Of a stretch of DNA of 32,865 bases, positions 1 through 11,886 are shown piece after piece; within the stretch, counting starts at the first letter, position 1, and every line of letters begins with the position of its first letter. The notes below the pieces were generated by a model. The model saw only the letters and a list, made by a program, of their open reading frames with translations, did no database searches and was not told the DNA's origin. Source of the stretch: Candidatus Avelusimicrobium pecoris (GTDB lineage: Bacteria; Elusimicrobiota; Elusimicrobia; Elusimicrobiales; Elusimicrobiaceae); contig CACWMG010000014.1 of assembly GCA_902761975.1 (NCBI GenBank), forward strand, positions 1 through 32,865, in the 5' to 3' direction. The position numbers and the translations under genes are program-made.

Positions 1-2244
1 TTCGCTTACGTCCTTTTGGTTGGTGTGCGGATACAAAATAGTTTTCACGCCCTCGCGGTAGGCGGCTAAAAATTTCTCTTTTATTCCCCCCACCGGCAAA
101 ATGCGCCCCGTAATGGTAACCTCGCCGGTCATAGCCAGTTTCTTCTTCACGGGCAGGCCCGTCAATAAACTAGTTAGTGCGGTCGTAATCACCCCACCCG
201 CCGACGGACCGTCTTTGGGGATGGCCCCTTCGGGGAAGTGGATGTGAAAATCGGTCTTATCAAATTCCACATCTTTGCCGTAGCCGCGGCTTTGCGCGTA
301 CGTCAGTGCGGCGCGCACAGACTCTTTCATCACGTTGCCCAGCATCCCCGTCAAAATCAGCGCCCCTTTGCCGGGTAGTTTGGTGGCTTCAATGGTTAGC
401 GTTTCGCCGCCCACACTCGTCCAGGCAAGGCCCGTGGCAATCCCAACGCCGTTATCTTCAGTCGCAAAATTGGAATACTTGGGCACACCCAAAAACTCGT
501 GCAGATTGGCCTTAGTAACGTGCACTTTTTTGGCCCCTTCCACTACCTTGCGCGCGGCTTTGCGGCACAGAGAGCCGATTTCACGCTCCAAATTACGCAC
601 TCCGGCTTCGCGCACATAATCGCGCATCAACAGGGCCACCGCGTCTTTATCAATTTCCAGCTGTCCTTTTTTAAGCCCGTGTATTTTGAGTTGTTTGGGC
701 AGCAGATAATTATTTACAATATCGTGCTTTTCATACTCGGTATATCCGTCAAAATCAATAATTTCCAAACGGTCGCGCAAGGTAACCGGGATGGACGAGA
801 GCGAGTTTGCCGTCGTAATAAACATCACTTTAGAAACGTCAAACGGCACATCTAAAAAGTGGTCGGTAAACTCTTTGTTTTGTTCCGGGTCCAACAGCTC
901 CAACAGCGCCGCGGCCGGGTCGCCACGCCAATCGGACCCCATTTTGTCAATTTCGTCCAACAAAAACACGGGGTTGGCGCTTTTGGCTTTGCTAATACCT
1001 TGGATAATGCGCCCGGGCATAGAGCCGATATACGTGCGGCGGTGGCCGCGGATTTCGCTTTCATCCCGCACGCCGCCTAAACTCATACGCACAAATTTGC
1101 GCCCAATGGCGCGCGCAATAGACTTAGCAAGCGAGGTTTTCCCCACCCCCGGGGCCCCGGCAAAGCACAGCACCGGGCCGCGCAAAGCGCCGGTTAGTTT
1201 ATTTACAGCCAAATACTCCAAAATGCGCTCTTTGGGTTTTTCTAGACCAAAGTGGTCCTCGTCCAAAATCTGGCGCGCTTTTTTAAGGTCCAATACGTCC
1301 GTGGTGGTTTTGTTCCACGGCATATTAAGCAGCCAATCCAAATACGTGCGCGCAACCGTAGCCTCAGGCGAGAACGGTTGCATTTTAGACAGCCGGTCCA
1401 GCTCTTTATTGGCTTCTTCGGCCGCGTGGGGCGGCAGACCGTTTTTCTTAATTTTGGCGCGCATGGCGTCTAATTCTTTTTGGAAATCGTCCTTTTGGCT
1501 CAGTTCTTTTTGAATGGCCTTCATTTGCTCATTTAAATAGTATTCTTTTTGGTTTTTATCCATTTGCGCGCGGACTTTATTATGGATTTTGTTTTCAATA
1601 TCCATAATTTGAATTTCCGACGTGATGAGCTTTAAAATTTTCTCCAAACGCTCCGTAATTTTAACCGCTTCCAAAATTTCCTGGCGTTGCGCGGTTTTAA
1701 CCAGCATATTGGACGCAATTGTGTCGGCCAGTTTGGACGGGTCGGTAATTTGGCGCAGGAAAGACACCCCCTCCACCGCCACCCGGTGCGACGTGCGGGC
1801 ATATTGGTCAAACTCGTCTAACACTTGGCGCATGAGGGCCTGGACCACCGGGGAATTATCGTCCTCTTCCTCAATATATTCCACCTGGGCAAACCAAGCG
1901 TTTTCGCCGGGGTTTACGTCCAATTTATGCACGCGTGCGCGGGCCAACCCTTGCAAAAATACTTTTAAGGAGCCCGTCGGCAAGCGTAAATTTTGGGTAA
2001 TTTGACAAATCACCCCAAAGTGGTAGAGGTCTTTTTCTTTCGGGTTTTCGTTCTCGGCATCTTTTTGGGAAATAGCTAAAATGTAATTGCCGGGCGTGCG
2101 CAAGGCGTGCTCTACGGCGTTAATGGACCGTTCCCGGTCCACCGATAGCGGCAAACTCATCCCCGGGAACATCACCACATCCCGGATGGTTACCACCGGC
2201 ACTACAGTAGGCAAAGAAAGCGTTAATTTTTTAATTTCTTCCAT
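1..2244 (-). CDS. lon: ATP-dependent Lon protease (3' end cut by window edge)
   Basis: Cytoplasmic AAA+ serine protease that unfolds and degrades damaged and regulatory proteins. 748 codons are visible with no in-frame stop; roughly the last 30-60 residues of a typical Lon lie outside the window. Order: N-terminal substrate domain (about 1-200), coiled-coil linker (about 200-310), AAA+ module with Walker A GAPGVGKT (K369) and Walker B LLDEID (D430-E431), then the protease domain with PKDGPSAGG (catalytic S681) and GGIKEKF (catalytic K722). These fit the E. coli Ser-Lys dyad spacing closely. The ATG at 2244 is supported by an AGGGAG Shine-Dalgarno at 2253-2258. It is transcribed away from the PAS gene's 3' end, from its own promoter. 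Only one CtsR-like half-site is seen upstream, so heat-shock control cannot be claimed. Confidence 0.97.
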   Translation of the reverse strand, partial: MEEIKKLTLSLPTVVPVVTIRDVVMFPGMSLPLSVDRERSINAVEHALRTPGNYILAISQKDAENENPKEKDLYHFGVICQITQNLRLPTGSLKVFLQGLARARVHKLDVNPGENAWFAQVEYIEEEDDNSPVVQALMRQVLDEFDQYARTSHRVAVEGVSFLRQITDPSKLADTIASNMLVKTAQRQEILEAVKITERLEKILKLITSEIQIMDIENKIHNKVRAQMDKNQKEYYLNEQMKAIQKELSQKDDFQKELDAMRAKIKKNGLPPHAAEEANKELDRLSKMQPFSPEATVARTYLDWLLNMPWNKTTTDVLDLKKARQILDEDHFGLEKPKERILEYLAVNKLTGALRGPVLCFAGAPGVGKTSLAKSIARAIGRKFVRMSLGGVRDESEIRGHRRTYIGSMPGRIIQGISKAKSANPVFLLDEIDKMGSDWRGDPAAALLELLDPEQNKEFTDHFLDVPFDVSKVMFITTANSLSSIPVTLRDRLEIIDFDGYTEYEKHDIVNNYLLPKQLKIHGLKKGQLEIDKDAVALLMRDYVREAGVRNLEREIGSLCRKAARKVVEGAKKVHVTKANLHEFLGVPKYSNFATEDNGVGIATGLAWTSVGGETLTIEATKLPGKGALILTGMLGNVMKESVRAALTYAQSRGYGKDVEFDKTDFHIHFPEGAIPKDGPSAGGVITTALTSLLTGLPVKKKLAMTGEVTITGRILPVGGIKEKFLAAYREGVKTILYPHTNQKDVSE

Positions 2245-2425: not shown

Positions 2426-5400
2426 TTATTGCACCTCTATGAGTGCATAGCTGGCCACGCCCCCGGTATCATCTTGGCATGGCATTACCTCAAAGGTGTG
2501 TTCTTGATAAGTACCTTTGCGGGTGCGTAGTTCCAGCGTGACCGAGAACGCTTTTCCGTCGGCCCCGCGGGCCAAATCGTGGAACATGCGCTTGGAAATA
2601 TCGTCATTACGCACTACTTCACTAAAGAAATCGCGGCCCATTAAATTACTTTCCCGTTTATCCACTAAGTCCAACATGGGTTGGTTGACAAAAGAAACTT
2701 CATAGTCCAAATCCAACATCACAGCCGGCTTATCCACGTGCTCTAAGGTGCGCGCAAACGCGCGGGAGGCCTCGCTCAGCATTTTGCCGGTTTGGCGCAG
2801 TTCAATGCGCATACCTAACAGCCGCGCCAGTAAGCCCATTAACTCCTCTGCCCCGGTGTCAAAACTACGCCGTTTGGCTTTGGAAGCAAAGCACAACGCC
2901 CCCATGGCTTTTCCCCCCACCATCAGTGGGGCCGCCACCATAGAGCCCAACCCTTTTTGTTGGTGCAAGCAATTTTTGCAGGAAGTAACGGATAAATCCG
3001 GCCACAACAGCACATTTCCGTCGGTTACGTTATACAAACATTCCTCCGTAGGGAACGCGCTATGGCGCTGCAAATTTAATTCGTTAGGGGTCACGTACAT
3101 CAGGTGCGTTTCAAAGTTGTCTTCCGCCCCCGCAAAACGCAGTACAAAGCCCACGTCCGCACGGAACACTTTCAGGCCAAACTCCAAAATTTTATCCACT
3201 TGCTGGGTCATGGACAACCCCGGTTGGCTGGTAATGCGGTACAGTTCACGCACTTGCTCCTCGTGCGAGTGCCCTTGGGAAACGTCTTTAAGCCATACAA
3301 TTACTTCATCCCGCCCGGTAATGGGGGTGACGCTCGCCTCAAAATAGCGCATAGAATCGGCCAGTTTCCACTCCAACTCAAAGCCGGTAGCCACGTTCAT
3401 AGATAACGCTTCTTTAACGGTAAGTACCGCGCGTTGGGCCGTTTCTTTTGGCCAGTACTGTTTAGGGGTTTTGCCCAGGAAAATAGCTTGGGCGTCTTGC
3501 GCATTTAAATAAGGCAAGTTGGAATAAACTTCCAACCCCTTACCGTTACTATCCATTTTTACATAGATCCCCGGCAAAGAGGCCCGCACACTGCTTAGTT
3601 CCAACGCTTCGTTAGACGTGCGCGACCAGTCGGCCCGCTCGGTTTGTACGTCCCGCAGTACCACCAAGGCGGCCGGTTCGCCCGGCAAATCCAGGGCCGT
3701 CATGGATAACTGGGCCTCAAAGTCCGTACCGTCCTTGCAACGCACTTTTTCTACCAAGCTCACTTTACCTTGTTTGGCAAGCTCTTTTTGCGCTTTAGTG
3801 AGTACGGCAGCTTTTGTAGTGGGCAGTAAGTCCTTTAATTGCATATGCGCCAGTTCATCTTGGCTGTAGCCTACTTTTTCGGCCAAGTGTTGGCTGATGT
3901 TATCTAACGCCCCAAACCGCCCTTTATTAAGCAGCACAGAAAATACAATCCCGTTGGTAGATTCCAACAAGGCGTTAAGTTGCGCGGAGCGTTCTTCCAA
4001 CACTTTCATCAGTTGCAGATGCACCGTCCGGTTACGCAAAACAAAGAGATATTTTCCCCCGTCCTCTTTAATACCGGTTAGCCGCACCGCAATTTTTTCT
4101 AACCCGCTGGCCGGATTGATAAAATAATCCCGGTTGGACAGCGTGCCCGTATCGGCCAGCACACGCAAATCCGCCTCAAACTGGGCTTTGGACTCCTCGT
4201 CCATAATATATTGCACCGGGTGGCCCAACAGTTCTTCTTCACTGAGTTGGCACAGTTCACAAAATAGCTCATTACAAGAACTCATACTAAAATCAGCCGT
4301 GCACAGCACATACGGCTCGCTATTGGGCAAAATAAGCATTTCCTGCGCCGCTTTTACCGGCAGTACTGCCACCGGGGGCAACGGCTTACGTAGCAACCGG
4401 GTGGACGGAGCACTCACCGGGGCTTGCGGTTGGGCCCCGCGCACTTGCAACGTAACTACATAGTCACACAATTTCCCGCTGGAAGCGCCGTCTTTATGAA
4501 TCGGCGTAAAGACCAAATGGAGCGGCAATTTGGCGCGTGTGCCGTCTATACGGCCCGGGAATTTTTCGGCACTGCGGGCAAAGTCAAAATCGTAATCCAT
4601 TTCCGCTGTTTCCCCTGCCTGCATATGGCGGCGTACGGCCAAACTAAGGCCCGGGCGGATATAGACATTGCGGTAGAACGTTTTGTCTGTTTCTTTAAAT
4701 CCAAACAAATTGCGTGCGGCCGCGTTCATTAGGCTAATACGCCCATTGCTAAGCAGTACAAAGCTAGCTACGGACGAATTTTCAAACGCCTGGCGGTAGC
4801 CCTCGCGCTCCCGCACCAGTTCGCGCTGGGTGCGGTTCCACGCAGTAACATCTTGCACGAAGCACAATACAATGCGCCGCCCTAAATAGCGCGAAGCCAC
4901 CGCCGCAAAATCTACCTCAATGGTTTTCCCGTCTTTTTGGCGCAATTTGAGCGTGATAGCATCCCCGCTCCCTTCCGCACCTGCTAATACCGCATCATAT
5001 TTTTCCTCAAGTAAATTTTGGGTATCTGCGCTGGCAAGCTCAGCCAAAGGACGTCCGGTTAGTTCTTCCAATGTTTCGTAACCCAACATCCGGCACAAGG
5101 CCCGGTTGGCATACATAACTTTTTTGTCTTCTGCTAACAGGACCCCCTCGCGGGCATTTTCCACCAGTAGCGTATTTTTATCGCTGGCCTCGCGGATTTG
5201 TTTTTCCATTTTAGTTTTGGCGGTAATATCTTCGGACACTACAATCAAACAATCCGGGGTACCGTCTTCATGGAAAACAGGCGTCTTAACCGTGTGCATA
5301 ATTTTGACACCTTCGTTAGAAGTGGAAATCAGTTCCTGGGCAATGTTTTGTTCTTTTTTGCTATCAAAAACTTTCAAATCTCCCTCACGCACAAACTCTT

Positions 5401-7465
5401 GTTGTTCGTTATTCAGGTCCGTACGGTAAGAAGTTTGACCAATTACTTCACTGGCGGAAATACCAAAAAGTTCTTCACTCTTTTTATTCCATAAAATATA
5501 TTTCCCTTCGTACGATTTGACCGACAGCGAAACCGGCAAGTTATTAATAATGGCTTGCAGGAAGTTTTTAGCGTCTATAACAGCGCGTTCCTGCGCTTTT
5601 TTCTGCGTTACATCTTCCGCCACCGTCAGTACCATAAAGGGCTTGCCGTCTTTATCAAATACAGGGGCTTTGGTAAGATGCAGCAAAATTTTTTGCCCGG
5701 TAAGGGTCGTGTAATGTTCTTCGGGCAAGTCTAACACTTTACCGTTTTCAAAAATAGATTTTTCACGTTTGTCGTAAAAATCGGGGGCGTTACCCACGGA
5801 TTGGGAATCTTGATTTTCGCCGGGGAACAACTCGTGTGCCCGTTGATTGACAAACATAATGGTGTCGTCAGCCCCGCGGGCGTAAATAGCCACCGGTACA
5901 TTATCTAAGAGTGTTTGCAAGAAATTTTTGGTTTCCAACAAATCTTTTTCTTGCGCCTTACGCTGGGTAATATCTTCTACAAGCGTAATGACAAATTTTT
6001 CCTCCTCTTGGGTCCCCGTAACCGGCACTTTAATCATGCGTAGCAGTTTGGTAGTTCCGTCCCCCGTTACATAGGATTCTTCGGGGATATGCAGCGGCTT
6101 ACCCGTCTCAAGCACCTGGTGTTCCCGCTCCAAGAAACCACTTACCTGGGCCGGGGTTTCATGCGGAAGGGTAAAGCGGGGTTTATTCATATCTTGCAGG
6201 GGCATCGTACCAAACAAATCGGCGCATTGTTGGTTACGCAGTAGCATACGCCCGTCCGGGGTACGCGCATACAACCCAATGGGTGCATTTTGCACAATAG
6301 CAGTGAGCAAGTTGTTAACGCGTTTAATTTCTTTTTCTTTTGCCAATTTATCGGTAATATCTTCCACAATAGATAATACTAACGGCTTGGGCCCTGCGTC
6401 CATCAGTGGCACTTTGCGCAAATGTAAAATTTTCTTATTGCCCAAACTGTCCGTATATTCTTCTTCGGGATAATCTTTAATTTTACCTTCTTTTAAAATT
6501 TGTTGTTCGCGCGAGTGATGCCGCTCCGTATCTTTTTGCGTTTGGTACTCATGTGCTTTAGAAACGTGTTCTTCATTTTTCTCATTAAGCACTTTTAAAC
6601 TTTGCCGGTTATAAAACGTTACCTGGTTGTCGCAATCGCGCGTGTAAAGGCCCAGGGGTACGTTATCTAACACCGCGCGCAACAACGTACGGTTTTGAAG
6701 TAAATTTTGCTCGTACAAGTGCCGGGCCGTTACATCTTCAAACAGCGTTAAAATGCGCAAGTCTTTGCCTTGTTTAGCGGGTAAAAACAGTTTGCTCACC
6801 CGCAGTACCAACTCTTTGCCTTGGGCATTTTTGTAAGCAAGTTGTACCGGGTCTTGCGAAGCGCGCTGGGTAACAATTTTTTCGTCTAAATGTTGCAAGG
6901 AGGGGGTCATTTCCTTGGGCAAAAAGGGATATACTTCTTGCCCCAGTACATCTGCCTCTTTGTAGCCAAATAACGTTTCCGCTTTGTGGGACCACAATAC
7001 ACACTTGCCCGCTAAATTTTGTACCACTACGGCGCACGGGCTACCGTCCACCACACTACGCAAGAAAGAGTTATCCGCCGTTAACTGTGTAAAATGCGGG
7101 ATAGACTCCATGGTTAGCATAATAAACGGCGTTGAGGCCAAAAAACTGGCCGCCGCCCCTACAAACACAGAATCGGCCTGGTCATTAACCAGTTCAATAA
7201 TAATTTTTTTAGGCGGATTAGCTTGCGCCATGGTGCGTATTTTTTCCATGGTAAGCCCAAACCGGTCCACGTATGAGGACACGAGTACGGCCTCTTCCGT
7301 ATGCAGTAGCCGCACCGCACTGGGGTTGGCAAACGTAATATGCCCGGTAGCATCCACCAAGAGCAGTGCCAAAGGATATTGTTGCAAAAACGTCAACATA
7401 TCCGGCGAAAGAGCCGTTAAAGCCTTTTGTTTTTTAGCAGAAAGAAAAGAAAAGAAATTTGCCAT
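2426..7465 (-). CDS. Giant multi-PAS/GAF protein without an output domain
   Basis: 1679 residues, no signal peptide or membrane segment, so probably cytoplasmic. I read about twelve PAS units: roughly 25-125, 130-250, 255-375, 385-505, 510-625, 630-750, 762-878, 890-1010, 1045-1150, 1163-1275, 1290-1397 and 1570-1679. A GAF domain spans about 1405-1558. Units 3-6 are recent-looking tandem copies: [LI]xxNxPxxxYxR-type motifs recur near 265, 390, 519 and 639, and each of units 3-5 continues with PEExY and a closing EDIT/EDVT. The GAF domain has a CxxC pair (C1496, C1499). The protein ends inside the last PAS; I see no HisKA/HATPase, GGDEF, EAL, methyl-accepting or DNA-binding domain. PAS/GAF domains bind small ligands or cofactors and mediate protein contacts, so it may be a sensor scaffold for separate kinases, but the function is unknown. 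The ATG at 7465 has GAGG just upstream. Confidence 0.9.
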   Translation of the reverse strand: MANFFSFLSAKKQKALTALSPDMLTFLQQYPLALLLVDATGHITFANPSAVRLLHTEEAVLVSSYVDRFGLTMEKIRTMAQANPPKKIIIELVNDQADSVFVGAAASFLASTPFIMLTMESIPHFTQLTADNSFLRSVVDGSPCAVVVQNLAGKCVLWSHKAETLFGYKEADVLGQEVYPFLPKEMTPSLQHLDEKIVTQRASQDPVQLAYKNAQGKELVLRVSKLFLPAKQGKDLRILTLFEDVTARHLYEQNLLQNRTLLRAVLDNVPLGLYTRDCDNQVTFYNRQSLKVLNEKNEEHVSKAHEYQTQKDTERHHSREQQILKEGKIKDYPEEEYTDSLGNKKILHLRKVPLMDAGPKPLVLSIVEDITDKLAKEKEIKRVNNLLTAIVQNAPIGLYARTPDGRMLLRNQQCADLFGTMPLQDMNKPRFTLPHETPAQVSGFLEREHQVLETGKPLHIPEESYVTGDGTTKLLRMIKVPVTGTQEEEKFVITLVEDITQRKAQEKDLLETKNFLQTLLDNVPVAIYARGADDTIMFVNQRAHELFPGENQDSQSVGNAPDFYDKREKSIFENGKVLDLPEEHYTTLTGQKILLHLTKAPVFDKDGKPFMVLTVAEDVTQKKAQERAVIDAKNFLQAIINNLPVSLSVKSYEGKYILWNKKSEELFGISASEVIGQTSYRTDLNNEQQEFVREGDLKVFDSKKEQNIAQELISTSNEGVKIMHTVKTPVFHEDGTPDCLIVVSEDITAKTKMEKQIREASDKNTLLVENAREGVLLAEDKKVMYANRALCRMLGYETLEELTGRPLAELASADTQNLLEEKYDAVLAGAEGSGDAITLKLRQKDGKTIEVDFAAVASRYLGRRIVLCFVQDVTAWNRTQRELVREREGYRQAFENSSVASFVLLSNGRISLMNAAARNLFGFKETDKTFYRNVYIRPGLSLAVRRHMQAGETAEMDYDFDFARSAEKFPGRIDGTRAKLPLHLVFTPIHKDGASSGKLCDYVVTLQVRGAQPQAPVSAPSTRLLRKPLPPVAVLPVKAAQEMLILPNSEPYVLCTADFSMSSCNELFCELCQLSEEELLGHPVQYIMDEESKAQFEADLRVLADTGTLSNRDYFINPASGLEKIAVRLTGIKEDGGKYLFVLRNRTVHLQLMKVLEERSAQLNALLESTNGIVFSVLLNKGRFGALDNISQHLAEKVGYSQDELAHMQLKDLLPTTKAAVLTKAQKELAKQGKVSLVEKVRCKDGTDFEAQLSMTALDLPGEPAALVVLRDVQTERADWSRTSNEALELSSVRASLPGIYVKMDSNGKGLEVYSNLPYLNAQDAQAIFLGKTPKQYWPKETAQRAVLTVKEALSMNVATGFELEWKLADSMRYFEASVTPITGRDEVIVWLKDVSQGHSHEEQVRELYRITSQPGLSMTQQVDKILEFGLKVFRADVGFVLRFAGAEDNFETHLMYVTPNELNLQRHSAFPTEECLYNVTDGNVLLWPDLSVTSCKNCLHQQKGLGSMVAAPLMVGGKAMGALCFASKAKRRSFDTGAEELMGLLARLLGMRIELRQTGKMLSEASRAFARTLEHVDKPAVMLDLDYEVSFVNQPMLDLVDKRESNLMGRDFFSEVVRNDDISKRMFHDLARGADGKAFSVTLELRTRKGTYQEHTFEVMPCQDDTGGVASYALIEVQ

Positions 7466-7608: not shown

Positions 7609-7637
7609 ATACTAACAAATCTTTCTAAATTTGTCAA
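7609..7637 (-). promoter_or_regulatory. Strong sigma-70 type promoter of the multi-PAS gene
   Basis: On the minus strand a perfect -35 TTGACA (7632-7637), a 17-base spacer and TAGTAT (7609-7614). Expected start near 7602, giving an mRNA leader of about 135 bases before the ATG at 7465. This is the best -35 in the window. The leader contains the 10-bp palindrome GCACGCGTGC (7549-7558) and the arms CGCG-AAA-CGCG (7501-7511), so it may be structured or protein-bound. Confidence 0.75.
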
Positions 7638-8436: not shown

Positions 8437-8955
8437 CTAAAATTTTATTTTATACAAACCGGCACCAGAAGGCCTAGTAGAAAATTTTTCCCCATAAGAA
8501 GCGCAAATATCTTCTCCTAAGTTTGTGTCTAAATTCTCAGTATAACAATACATATCATCAGGAGAATAAACATCAAGGGTTACATATTTACCAATCCAAA
8601 CAGTGCTACGTGACCCACTATAAATAACCAATTTTCCTTCTCCAACATCTTCGTACACATTTAGCCTTTCATCTTCAATATAATCTGCCACTTTATTGCC
8701 GTGTCTTATGGAAAGGTCCAGATCATCCAATTCGGCAGAATATTTCCCTGTAGCCAAATAATGGACATCTTGGGCCATAACAACCGAACGAAGCAAAGGA
8801 AATACCCTTGCAATACGTGCTTTTTCTACTGCTTTTTGATACTGCGGCACCGCCACCGCCGCTAATATACCAATAATCAAGACTACAACCAACAATTCTA
8901 TTAGAGCAAAGCCTCCATTCAAACAAAATACCATCTTATTTACTTCTTTTTTCAT
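8437..8955 (-). CDS. Type IV pilin-like protein (class III signal peptide)
   Basis: 172 residues from the ATG at 8955; a GTG one codon earlier (8958) is possible, but GGAGG suits either. A short basic leader precedes the prepilin site G15|F16 with FALIELLVVVLIIGILAAVAVPQYQKAVEKA. E20 is the conserved +5 glutamate; alanine replaces the usual threonine at +2. The hydrophobic helix (16-38) packs in the fibre core or membrane. The C-terminal region has C137 and C151, a likely disulfide loop. It could be a major pilin, minor pilin or type II secretion pseudopilin; no assembly genes are nearby. A single-gene unit convergent to the OmpA lipoprotein gene. Its possible promoter contains a 12-base homopolymer. 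Confidence 0.9.
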   Translation of the reverse strand: MKKEVNKMVFCLNGGFALIELLVVVLIIGILAAVAVPQYQKAVEKARIARVFPLLRSVVMAQDVHYLATGKYSAELDDLDLSIRHGNKVADYIEDERLNVYEDVGEGKLVIYSGSRSTVWIGKYVTLDVYSPDDMYCYTENLDTNLGEDICASYGEKFSTRPSGAGLYKIKF

Positions 8956-9002
8956 CACACATACCCCTCCATTTATATAAGTTTATCTTTCGTTATACCT
9001 CA

Positions 9003-11394: not shown

Positions 11395-11868
11395 TTAAGA
11401 CGCAGGCGCCTCATACCAACCGAGCGACTCACAAATAGCAATATCTTTATCGCTCGTGCCATCACATTTAAGCGATAAAGCCTTCCCGCCCACCGTTTGA
11501 TAGGGGTTCCAAATGGTGTAGGCATAGCCGCCGCTGTTACGCGTAGCCAACACGCCGTGGCACTCCGTGCCGGGCACAAGCGCCGTGGAACTGGGCATGG
11601 TGAACGTAAAATTTTTCGTTGTAATTTTGGTTCCTAGGGCGTCCGAGCCCGGCACCACAACTACTAATTTTTTAAAAGTAGGGCACTCTTCCTTATCCGC
11701 ATAATACGCATAAATGGAGTCATTCATGGCCTTAATATCTGCCATTGCCTCCGTAGCGCGGGAGCGCTCAACCGCCCGTGTGTACATAGGCAAAGCCATA
11801 GATGTTAAAATCCCAATAATAATAACCACTGTTAACACTTCTATTAACGTAAAACCATTTTTAGTCAT
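11395..11868 (-). CDS. Type IV pilin-like protein (second copy)
   Basis: 157 residues from the ATG at 11868. A frame-open ATG at 11886 lies upstream, but GGAGG is 6 bases before 11868, and the -10 box at 11887-11892 puts the transcription start downstream of 11886, which decides the start. The prepilin site is canonical: MTKNG|FTLIEVLTVVIIIGILTSMALPMYTRAVERSRA, with the +5 glutamate at residue 10. Cysteines at 62, 103, 135 and 146 suggest two disulfides, including a C-terminal loop. Like the pilin-like gene at 8437 it stands alone, away from assembly genes, and may be a minor pilin or pseudopilin. The two differ strongly beyond the N-terminal helix. Confidence 0.9.
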   Translation of the reverse strand: MTKNGFTLIEVLTVVIIIGILTSMALPMYTRAVERSRATEAMADIKAMNDSIYAYYADKEECPTFKKLVVVVPGSDALGTKITTKNFTFTMPSSTALVPGTECHGVLATRNSGGYAYTIWNPYQTVGGKALSLKCDGTSDKDIAICESLGWYEAPAS

Positions 11869-11886
11869 AATTTCCTCCGTGTTCAT

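What the first reader, a model, noticed from the sequence alone, without database searches (positions are those of the whole stretch)
2426..7465. Twelve-PAS/one-GAF giant cytoplasmic protein with no output domain
About 1680 residues are almost entirely sensory domains, with no kinase, cyclase, phosphodiesterase or DNA-binding part visible to the last residue. Units 3-6 look like recent tandem copies at about 125-residue spacing. It has its own near-consensus promoter with a long leader. It could be a cytoplasmic sensing scaffold or ruler docking several kinases or pilus/chemotaxis components; this is inference.
Basis: partly seen in the sequence, partly recalled or inferred. Interest (0 to 1): 0.6.

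Follow-up and report, generated by a model that had tools for sequence, protein, structure and literature searches.

The report
Giant sensor protein without a transmitter
A bacterium of the animal gut carries one huge protein made only of sensing domains (twelve PAS and one GAF) with nothing to pass the signal on, and it occurs in just those relatives whose old sensor kinase has lost its own sensing half, which suggests that one signalling machine has been split into two proteins.

Summary
The ORF (minus strand, 7465->2426, 1679 aa) has twelve PAS domains and one GAF by Pfam and two AlphaFold2 models, and it ends with the last strand of PAS12. No output domain is present, and none is in any orthologue examined that has an intact C-terminus.

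It is a conserved gene, not a truncated kinase. It is found in all 37 same-genus genomes and in three further genera of the family, ending at the same point. Units 1-5 vary in number. Units 6-12 plus the GAF are fixed, apart from two exceptions; unit 6 is by far the most conserved.

New result: an orthologous histidine kinase is GAF-PAS-HisKA-HATPase in the outgroups, but in the array-bearing genera it has lost GAF-PAS in place. Gene order and a tree support one loss. What remains is a 246-257 aa transmitter without a sensor. Array and sensorless kinase co-occur, with one exception (g16). The array's last PAS tracks this kinase in evolutionary distance more than any control gene (partial r about 0.65; suggestive only).

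Best reading: a sensor kinase whose sensor acts in trans (confidence 0.45). Shown: anatomy, conservation, co-occurrence. Inferred: contact and direction of signalling. Main rivals: another kinase as partner, or the kinase's operon neighbours as its regulators.

The parts
2426..7465 (-). output-less PAS-array gene, 1679 aa plus stop
   Evidence: orthologues
7609..7637 (-). extended sigma-70-like promoter TTGACA-17-TAGTAT, leader of roughly 135 nt
   Evidence: consensus match only
7430..7465 (-). N-terminal motif M(A/S)xxxFSFFS, conserved in the genus and in g12; disordered in the model
7091..7414 (-). PAS1 (residues 18-125), weak by HMM, PAS fold in model
6716..7090 (-). PAS2 (126-250)
6320..6715 (-). 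PAS3 (251-382)
5948..6319 (-). PAS4 (383-506)
5573..5947 (-). PAS5 (507-631), missing in part of the genus
5198..5572 (-). PAS6 (632-756), most conserved unit: 54 of 125 columns at 90% or more
4811..5197 (-). PAS7 (757-885)
   Evidence: HMM only; outside both models
4421..4810 (-). PAS8 (886-1015), followed by a disordered linker to residue about 1046
3956..4288 (-). PAS9 (1060-1170)
3596..3955 (-). PAS10 (1171-1290)
3251..3595 (-). PAS11 (1291-1405), below Pfam cut-off, PAS fold in model
2789..3250 (-). GAF (1406-1559) with conserved C1476, C1496, C1499, H1501
2429..2788 (-). PAS12 (1560-1679), reached by one long helix from the GAF; the protein ends with its last strand

Best explanation
The gene encodes a stand-alone sensor array: the input half of a sensor histidine kinase without its transmitter. 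Signals are bound by the PAS and GAF domains, with PAS6 and the Cys/His GAF the likeliest sensors. They travel through the chain of helices to the C-terminal GAF-PAS12, which docks in trans on a separately encoded transmitter-only kinase (HisKA-HATPase_c, 246 aa, same genome, G000:C18:12788-13525 minus) and switches it, as the GAF-PAS of the ancestral kinase did in cis. Shown: the anatomy, its conservation, the in-place loss of GAF-PAS from the kinase, and the co-occurrence. Inferred: contact, direction of control, ligands, and which response regulator follows.
For: Array without output, same end in all intact orthologues examined. In the own genome the sensory-box model finds PAS only in this protein. 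The kinase core has one orthologue in 37 of 37 same-genus genomes, frames of 241-281 aa; the outgroup orthologue is GAF-PAS-HisKA-HATPase of 507-539 aa. Orthology: the same beta-barrel-like gene lies directly upstream in 46 loci of both kinds, and the cores form one clade (100/100) next to g13/g14 full-length kinases (91/87) inside the GAF-PAS kinases (96/99). Array in g1, g12, g15, g16 and not in g13, g14 or f2; full-length kinase in g13, g14 and most f2 genomes. Kinase motifs (H, N, G1, F, G2 boxes) invariant. PAS12 tracks the kinase in distance beyond four control genes and the other units (partial r 0.65, highest of 60 combinations, 0.58-0.71 when any subclade is dropped; 0.69 with a slightly different control set, Mantel p 0.001).
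Against: The co-occurrence is one evolutionary transition on each side, not many independent ones. The g16 genome (92% complete) has an array but no core kinase. The two genes were not neighbours in any locus examined. The kinase core is coupled to a helical protein and a permease that also appear beside it only in the array genera and could control it. Array GAF-PAS12 is not demonstrably derived from the kinase's lost GAF-PAS (GAF best 14 bits, PAS12 none). The distance test has an unexplained second-highest pair (PAS6-permease 0.59), so its noise is large. No interaction was tested.
Confidence: 0.45

Rival explanations
1. The array works in trans, but on the other kinase without a sensor domain: the one with a transmembrane helix and coiled coil (G000 contig 26, 330-aa frame).
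For: In one g15 genome (G100) the array starts 118 bp downstream of this kinase on the same strand (L231); in two others they lie about 16 kb apart. The g16 genome has array and this kinase but no core kinase.
Against: Relatives of this kinase with the same length (319-342 aa frames, 40-45% identity) exist in f2 genomes that have no array, so its distribution does not follow the array. The adjacency is in one genome.
Confidence: 0.15
2. The core kinase is controlled by its own operon partners (the 165-174 aa helical protein whose gene overlaps it, and the permease), and the array is unrelated to it.
For: The helical protein and permease follow the kinase in all 35 core-type loci with enough flank and in none of the full-length loci; kinase and helical genes overlap by one base in G000, G112, G100 and G082.
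Against: It leaves the array without a partner, and does not explain why loss of GAF-PAS and presence of the array coincide. After controls the helical protein shows no excess distance correlation with the array's PAS12 (0.06), whereas the kinase does (0.65).
Confidence: 0.2
3. The array is a ligand-driven oligomerising scaffold for targets other than kinases (for example the GGDEF or GGDEF-EAL proteins, or the envelope).
For: Stand-alone PAS/GAF proteins can act by protein contact (general knowledge); the genome has three GGDEF hits, among them a GGDEF-EAL and a receiver-GGDEF protein without PAS. A conserved N-terminal FSFFS motif could anchor it. A Cys-rich secreted protein gene is its neighbour in most of the genus.
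Against: No constant cytoplasmic neighbour; nothing ties it to these proteins more than to others.
Confidence: 0.17
4. It is a kinase decapitated by a stop codon or a mis-assembly, or a decaying remnant.
For: It ends exactly where a histidine kinase would begin; its PAS domains resemble those of multi-PAS kinases in outgroups.
Against: The same end occurs in the intact orthologues of four genera, the frames are open at 41-84% identity within the genus, and no kinase frame follows: the next gene differs between clades.
Confidence: 0.03

Closest known systems
GAF-PAS-HisKA-HATPase_c kinase of related Elusimicrobiales (L147 1842-3401, about 520 aa)
   Same: GAF followed by PAS at the same end; its orthologue in the array genera is the transmitter-only kinase
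   Different: sensor and transmitter in one chain; one PAS instead of twelve; no demonstrable specific descent of the array's GAF-PAS12 from it
Multi-PAS kinases of the same family (L203 1399-aa frame, L204 1470-aa frame)
   Same: tandem PAS units related to array units such as 2, 5, 6, 7 and 10
   Different: carry a kinase (in L204 also receiver-like stretches, by eye)
NreA of Staphylococcus carnosus, a soluble GAF protein that regulates the NreB-NreC system (PMC8199190)
   Same: stand-alone cytoplasmic sensor fold acting on a kinase system in trans
   Different: single GAF domain; its kinase keeps its own oxygen sensor; the array is far larger and of PAS type
Chemoreceptor-CheW-CheA arrays (general knowledge)
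   Same: sensor and kinase are separate proteins
   Different: no MCP signalling domain in the array; candidate kinase has HisKA, not the CheA layout
PpsR, multi-PAS protein oligomerising through PAS helices (PMC3949515; PDB 4hh2)
   Same: several PAS domains joined by helices
   Different: ends in a DNA-binding HTH, absent here

Membership tests
PAS domain protein (Pfam PAS families) | PAS folds recognised by HMM and structure | tested here: met
Sensor histidine kinase | HisKA-type dimerisation and HATPase_c domains in the protein | tested here: not met
   no continuation into a kinase in intact orthologues
PAS-linked diguanylate cyclase / phosphodiesterase | GGDEF, EAL or HD-GYP domain | tested here: not met
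Chemoreceptor (MCP) | MCP signalling domain | tested here: not met
PAS-type transcription factor | DNA-binding domain | tested here: not met
   SpoVT_C is a sub-threshold hit that overlaps the GAF
Split (trans) sensor-kinase pair | sensor protein without transmitter | tested here: met
Split (trans) sensor-kinase pair | kinase with intact catalytic motifs but no sensor | tested here: met
Split (trans) sensor-kinase pair | the two co-occur | tested here: inconclusive
   both in g1, g12, g15; neither in g13, g14, f2; but g16 has array without core kinase, and it is a single transition
Split (trans) sensor-kinase pair | physical and functional interaction | not testable with these tools
   distance co-variation of PAS12 only

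The most novel reading that the evidence does not exclude
In a whole clade of host-associated Elusimicrobiota a sensor kinase has been taken apart: its sensor half was deleted in place and sensing passed to one giant array with many PAS inputs, so that a single output-less protein integrates many signals and drives a naked kinase core in trans through its last PAS domain.
Probability: 0.4. Interest if true: 0.8.

Novelty: new variant of a known kind. Interest (0 to 1): 0.62.

Why it matters
PAS domains are among the commonest sensor modules, and textbook signalling runs in cis from PAS through a helix into the transmitter. If this array drives a naked kinase core, it is a natural test of whether PAS-to-kinase coupling needs a covalent helix at all, and it shows how a reduced genome can pool its cytoplasmic sensing into one hub. 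It also names a concrete partner that can be tested with two purified proteins.

Tried and rejected
Truncated kinase or assembly artefact: rejected by the orthologues. Hidden C-terminal transmitter: rejected by HMM and model. Origin of array GAF-PAS12 from the kinase's lost GAF-PAS: not supported (best 14 bits for the GAF, none for PAS12; the best match of GAF-PAS12 together is a g13 multi-PAS kinase at 35 bits). Partner by gene neighbourhood: array neighbours differ between clades (lon only in the G000 subclade; Cys-rich secreted gene elsewhere in the genus). The TM coiled-coil kinase as the only partner: its distribution does not follow the array. Unit searches with a wrong frame failed once. 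PDB sequence searches of the whole protein and of PAS6 gave only weak PAS matches that name no ligand. Literature searches for output-less multi-PAS proteins or sensorless kinases found no description of this system; subscription journals are mostly not held.

Full report
WHAT IS THERE. The ORF runs on the minus strand from 7465 to 2426 (1679 aa). It lies in a 1.24-Mb, 59-contig genome whose close relatives are mostly gut Elusimicrobiota MAGs, one titled Candidatus Avelusimicrobium. Pfam and NCBIfam see only PAS and GAF. Taken one by one, units 1, 3, 9 and 11 are below curated cut-offs, but AlphaFold2 on orthologue alignments gives PAS or GAF folds through residues 1-760 (mean pLDDT 82.5) and 886-1679 (83.6). 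The count of twelve PAS and one GAF stands. A single helix of 37 residues leads from the GAF into PAS12, and the chain ends two residues after PAS12's last strand: the helix that would normally lead into a transmitter is missing. Foldseek against PDB lists PAS/GAF sensor proteins throughout its top 50. No membrane-like segment was seen.

CONSERVATION. A match is present in all 37 same-genus genomes, with no second copy in the own genome, and 46 loci were found in a separate species collection. With the family searched, it also occurs in g12 (3 of 3), g15 (17 of 18; the one without is 64% complete) and g16 (1 of 1), at 26-36% identity for the main matches. Intact orthologues end at the same place. 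In g13, g14 and the sister family f2 only generic PAS matches appear (best 80 bits, 30% over 236 residues), the best of them in an 868-aa frame that also holds an HATPase_c. Units 1-5 come and go between species, while PAS6-PAS12 with the GAF are present in nearly all. Exceptions: L046 lacks PAS11, and G036, cut by a contig end, joins PAS8 to PAS12 directly. PAS6 is extraordinary: 54 of 125 columns conserved at 90% or more against 0-20 in every other unit; identity to the window protein is 74% in the genus and 52-62% in other genera, where the other fixed units (PAS7-PAS12, GAF) show 15-37%. The GAF keeps C1476, C1496, C1499 and H1501 in at least 90% of rows, a possible metal or Fe-S site (inference).

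THE MISSING TRANSMITTER. The own genome was searched for partners. The sensory-box model hits only this protein (eight hits, one gene). The kinases found are two with HAMP and weak Cache matches, a receiver-kinase, one with a membrane helix and coiled coil (by eye), one HisKA_3 kinase, and one of 246 aa that is nothing but HisKA and HATPase_c. This last one has a single orthologue in 37 of 37 same-genus genomes, in frames of 241-281 aa. In the sister family the best match is about 520 aa: GAF, PAS, HisKA, HATPase_c (the PAS is clear by Pfam in L149 and by eye in the others). Over 149 genomes of the order, the full-length form is found in most f2 genomes and in the family's own g13 and g14; the core form in g1, g12 and g15. 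The gene directly upstream, a barrel-like protein of about 290 aa, is homologous in both kinds (46 loci), so GAF-PAS was lost in place. The tree puts all cores in one clade (100/100), next to g13/g14 (91/87) and inside the full-length kinases (96/99). The catalytic motifs of the core are invariant.

CO-OCCURRENCE AND ITS LIMITS. Array and core kinase are together in g1, g12 and g15, and both absent from g13, g14 and f2. This is one transition per gene, so it has little statistical weight. The g16 genome (92% complete) has an array but no core kinase. As a further check, pairwise distances of each array unit were compared with those of the kinase and four genes of its neighbourhood in 22 genomes, each pair controlled for the other four genes and the remaining units. 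PAS12 with the kinase gave 0.65, the highest of 60 combinations, 0.58-0.71 when any subclade was dropped; PAS12 with the other genes gave -0.15 to 0.22. With a slightly different control set the value was 0.69, Mantel p 0.001. PAS12 is the unit that would touch the kinase in an ordinary PAS kinase. But the test was chosen after the fact, and an unexplained pair (PAS6-permease) reaches 0.59, so it is suggestive only.

HOW IT MOST LIKELY WORKS. By established knowledge of PAS kinases, signals pass from PAS through a helix into the dimerisation helices of the transmitter. Here that covalent path is cut on both sides. The simplest reading is that the array's GAF-PAS12 end takes the place of the lost GAF-PAS by docking on the kinase core, while the conserved PAS6 and GAF, and the variable N-terminal units, supply the input. 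Contact, direction, ligand and response regulator are inferred.

RIVALS. The membrane coiled-coil kinase is next to the array in one genome (118 bp) and present in g16, but is also found in f2 without arrays. The helical protein and permease that follow the core kinase appear beside it only in its core form and may be its regulators. A scaffold for other targets cannot be excluded. That the array's GAF-PAS12 is the very piece lost from the kinase is not supported.

NOVELTY. Separate sensor and kinase are known (chemoreceptors and CheA by general knowledge; NreA and the NreBC system, PMC8199190). A twelve-PAS, output-less array conserved across several genera together with a kinase that lost its sensor was not found in the literature held here. 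I file it as a new variant of a known kind. The single-contig genome G091 (g12, 1,643,562 bases) has both genes; its size fits my recollection of the cultured Elusimicrobium minutum Pei191, so the pair may be testable in a cultured laboratory organism (identity not confirmed by a tool).

Noticed in passing
L002-L047, gene next to the array (e.g. L005 7214-7813 minus, L020 7279-7851 plus): A secreted, Cys-rich protein of about 190 aa (CPGNDI motif) adjoins the array in most of the genus, in either orientation, but not in the window's subclade; function unknown.
   Followed up: partly
L150 2262-5416 (G000 contig 18) and L111-L140, L211-L214: Operon of the core kinase: barrel-like gene, kinase, helical 165-174 aa protein, permease; the last two follow only the sensorless form of the kinase. 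The helical protein has no Pfam match.
   Followed up: partly
L231 2-3625 (G100): Array directly downstream (118 bp) of the membrane coiled-coil kinase in one g15 genome.
   Followed up: partly
L207 4158-5066 (G036): Array shortened inside: PAS8 runs straight into PAS12, without PAS9-11 and GAF; the upstream part is cut by the contig end.
   Followed up: partly
L005 3317-6432; L219, L221: Folate/queuosine-type genes (folK-, folP-, folE-, QueD-like by eye) lie beside the array in much of the genus and beside the membrane coiled-coil kinase in g15.
   Followed up: no
window 8437-8958 (-) and 11395-11886 (-): Two type IV pilin-like genes (by eye); relatives have many such genes near the array, sometimes three in a row.
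   Followed up: no
window 1-2244 (-): lon protease gene downstream of the array on the same strand; this order is kept only in the window's subclade (G000, G026, and in G009 with one gene inserted).
   Followed up: partly
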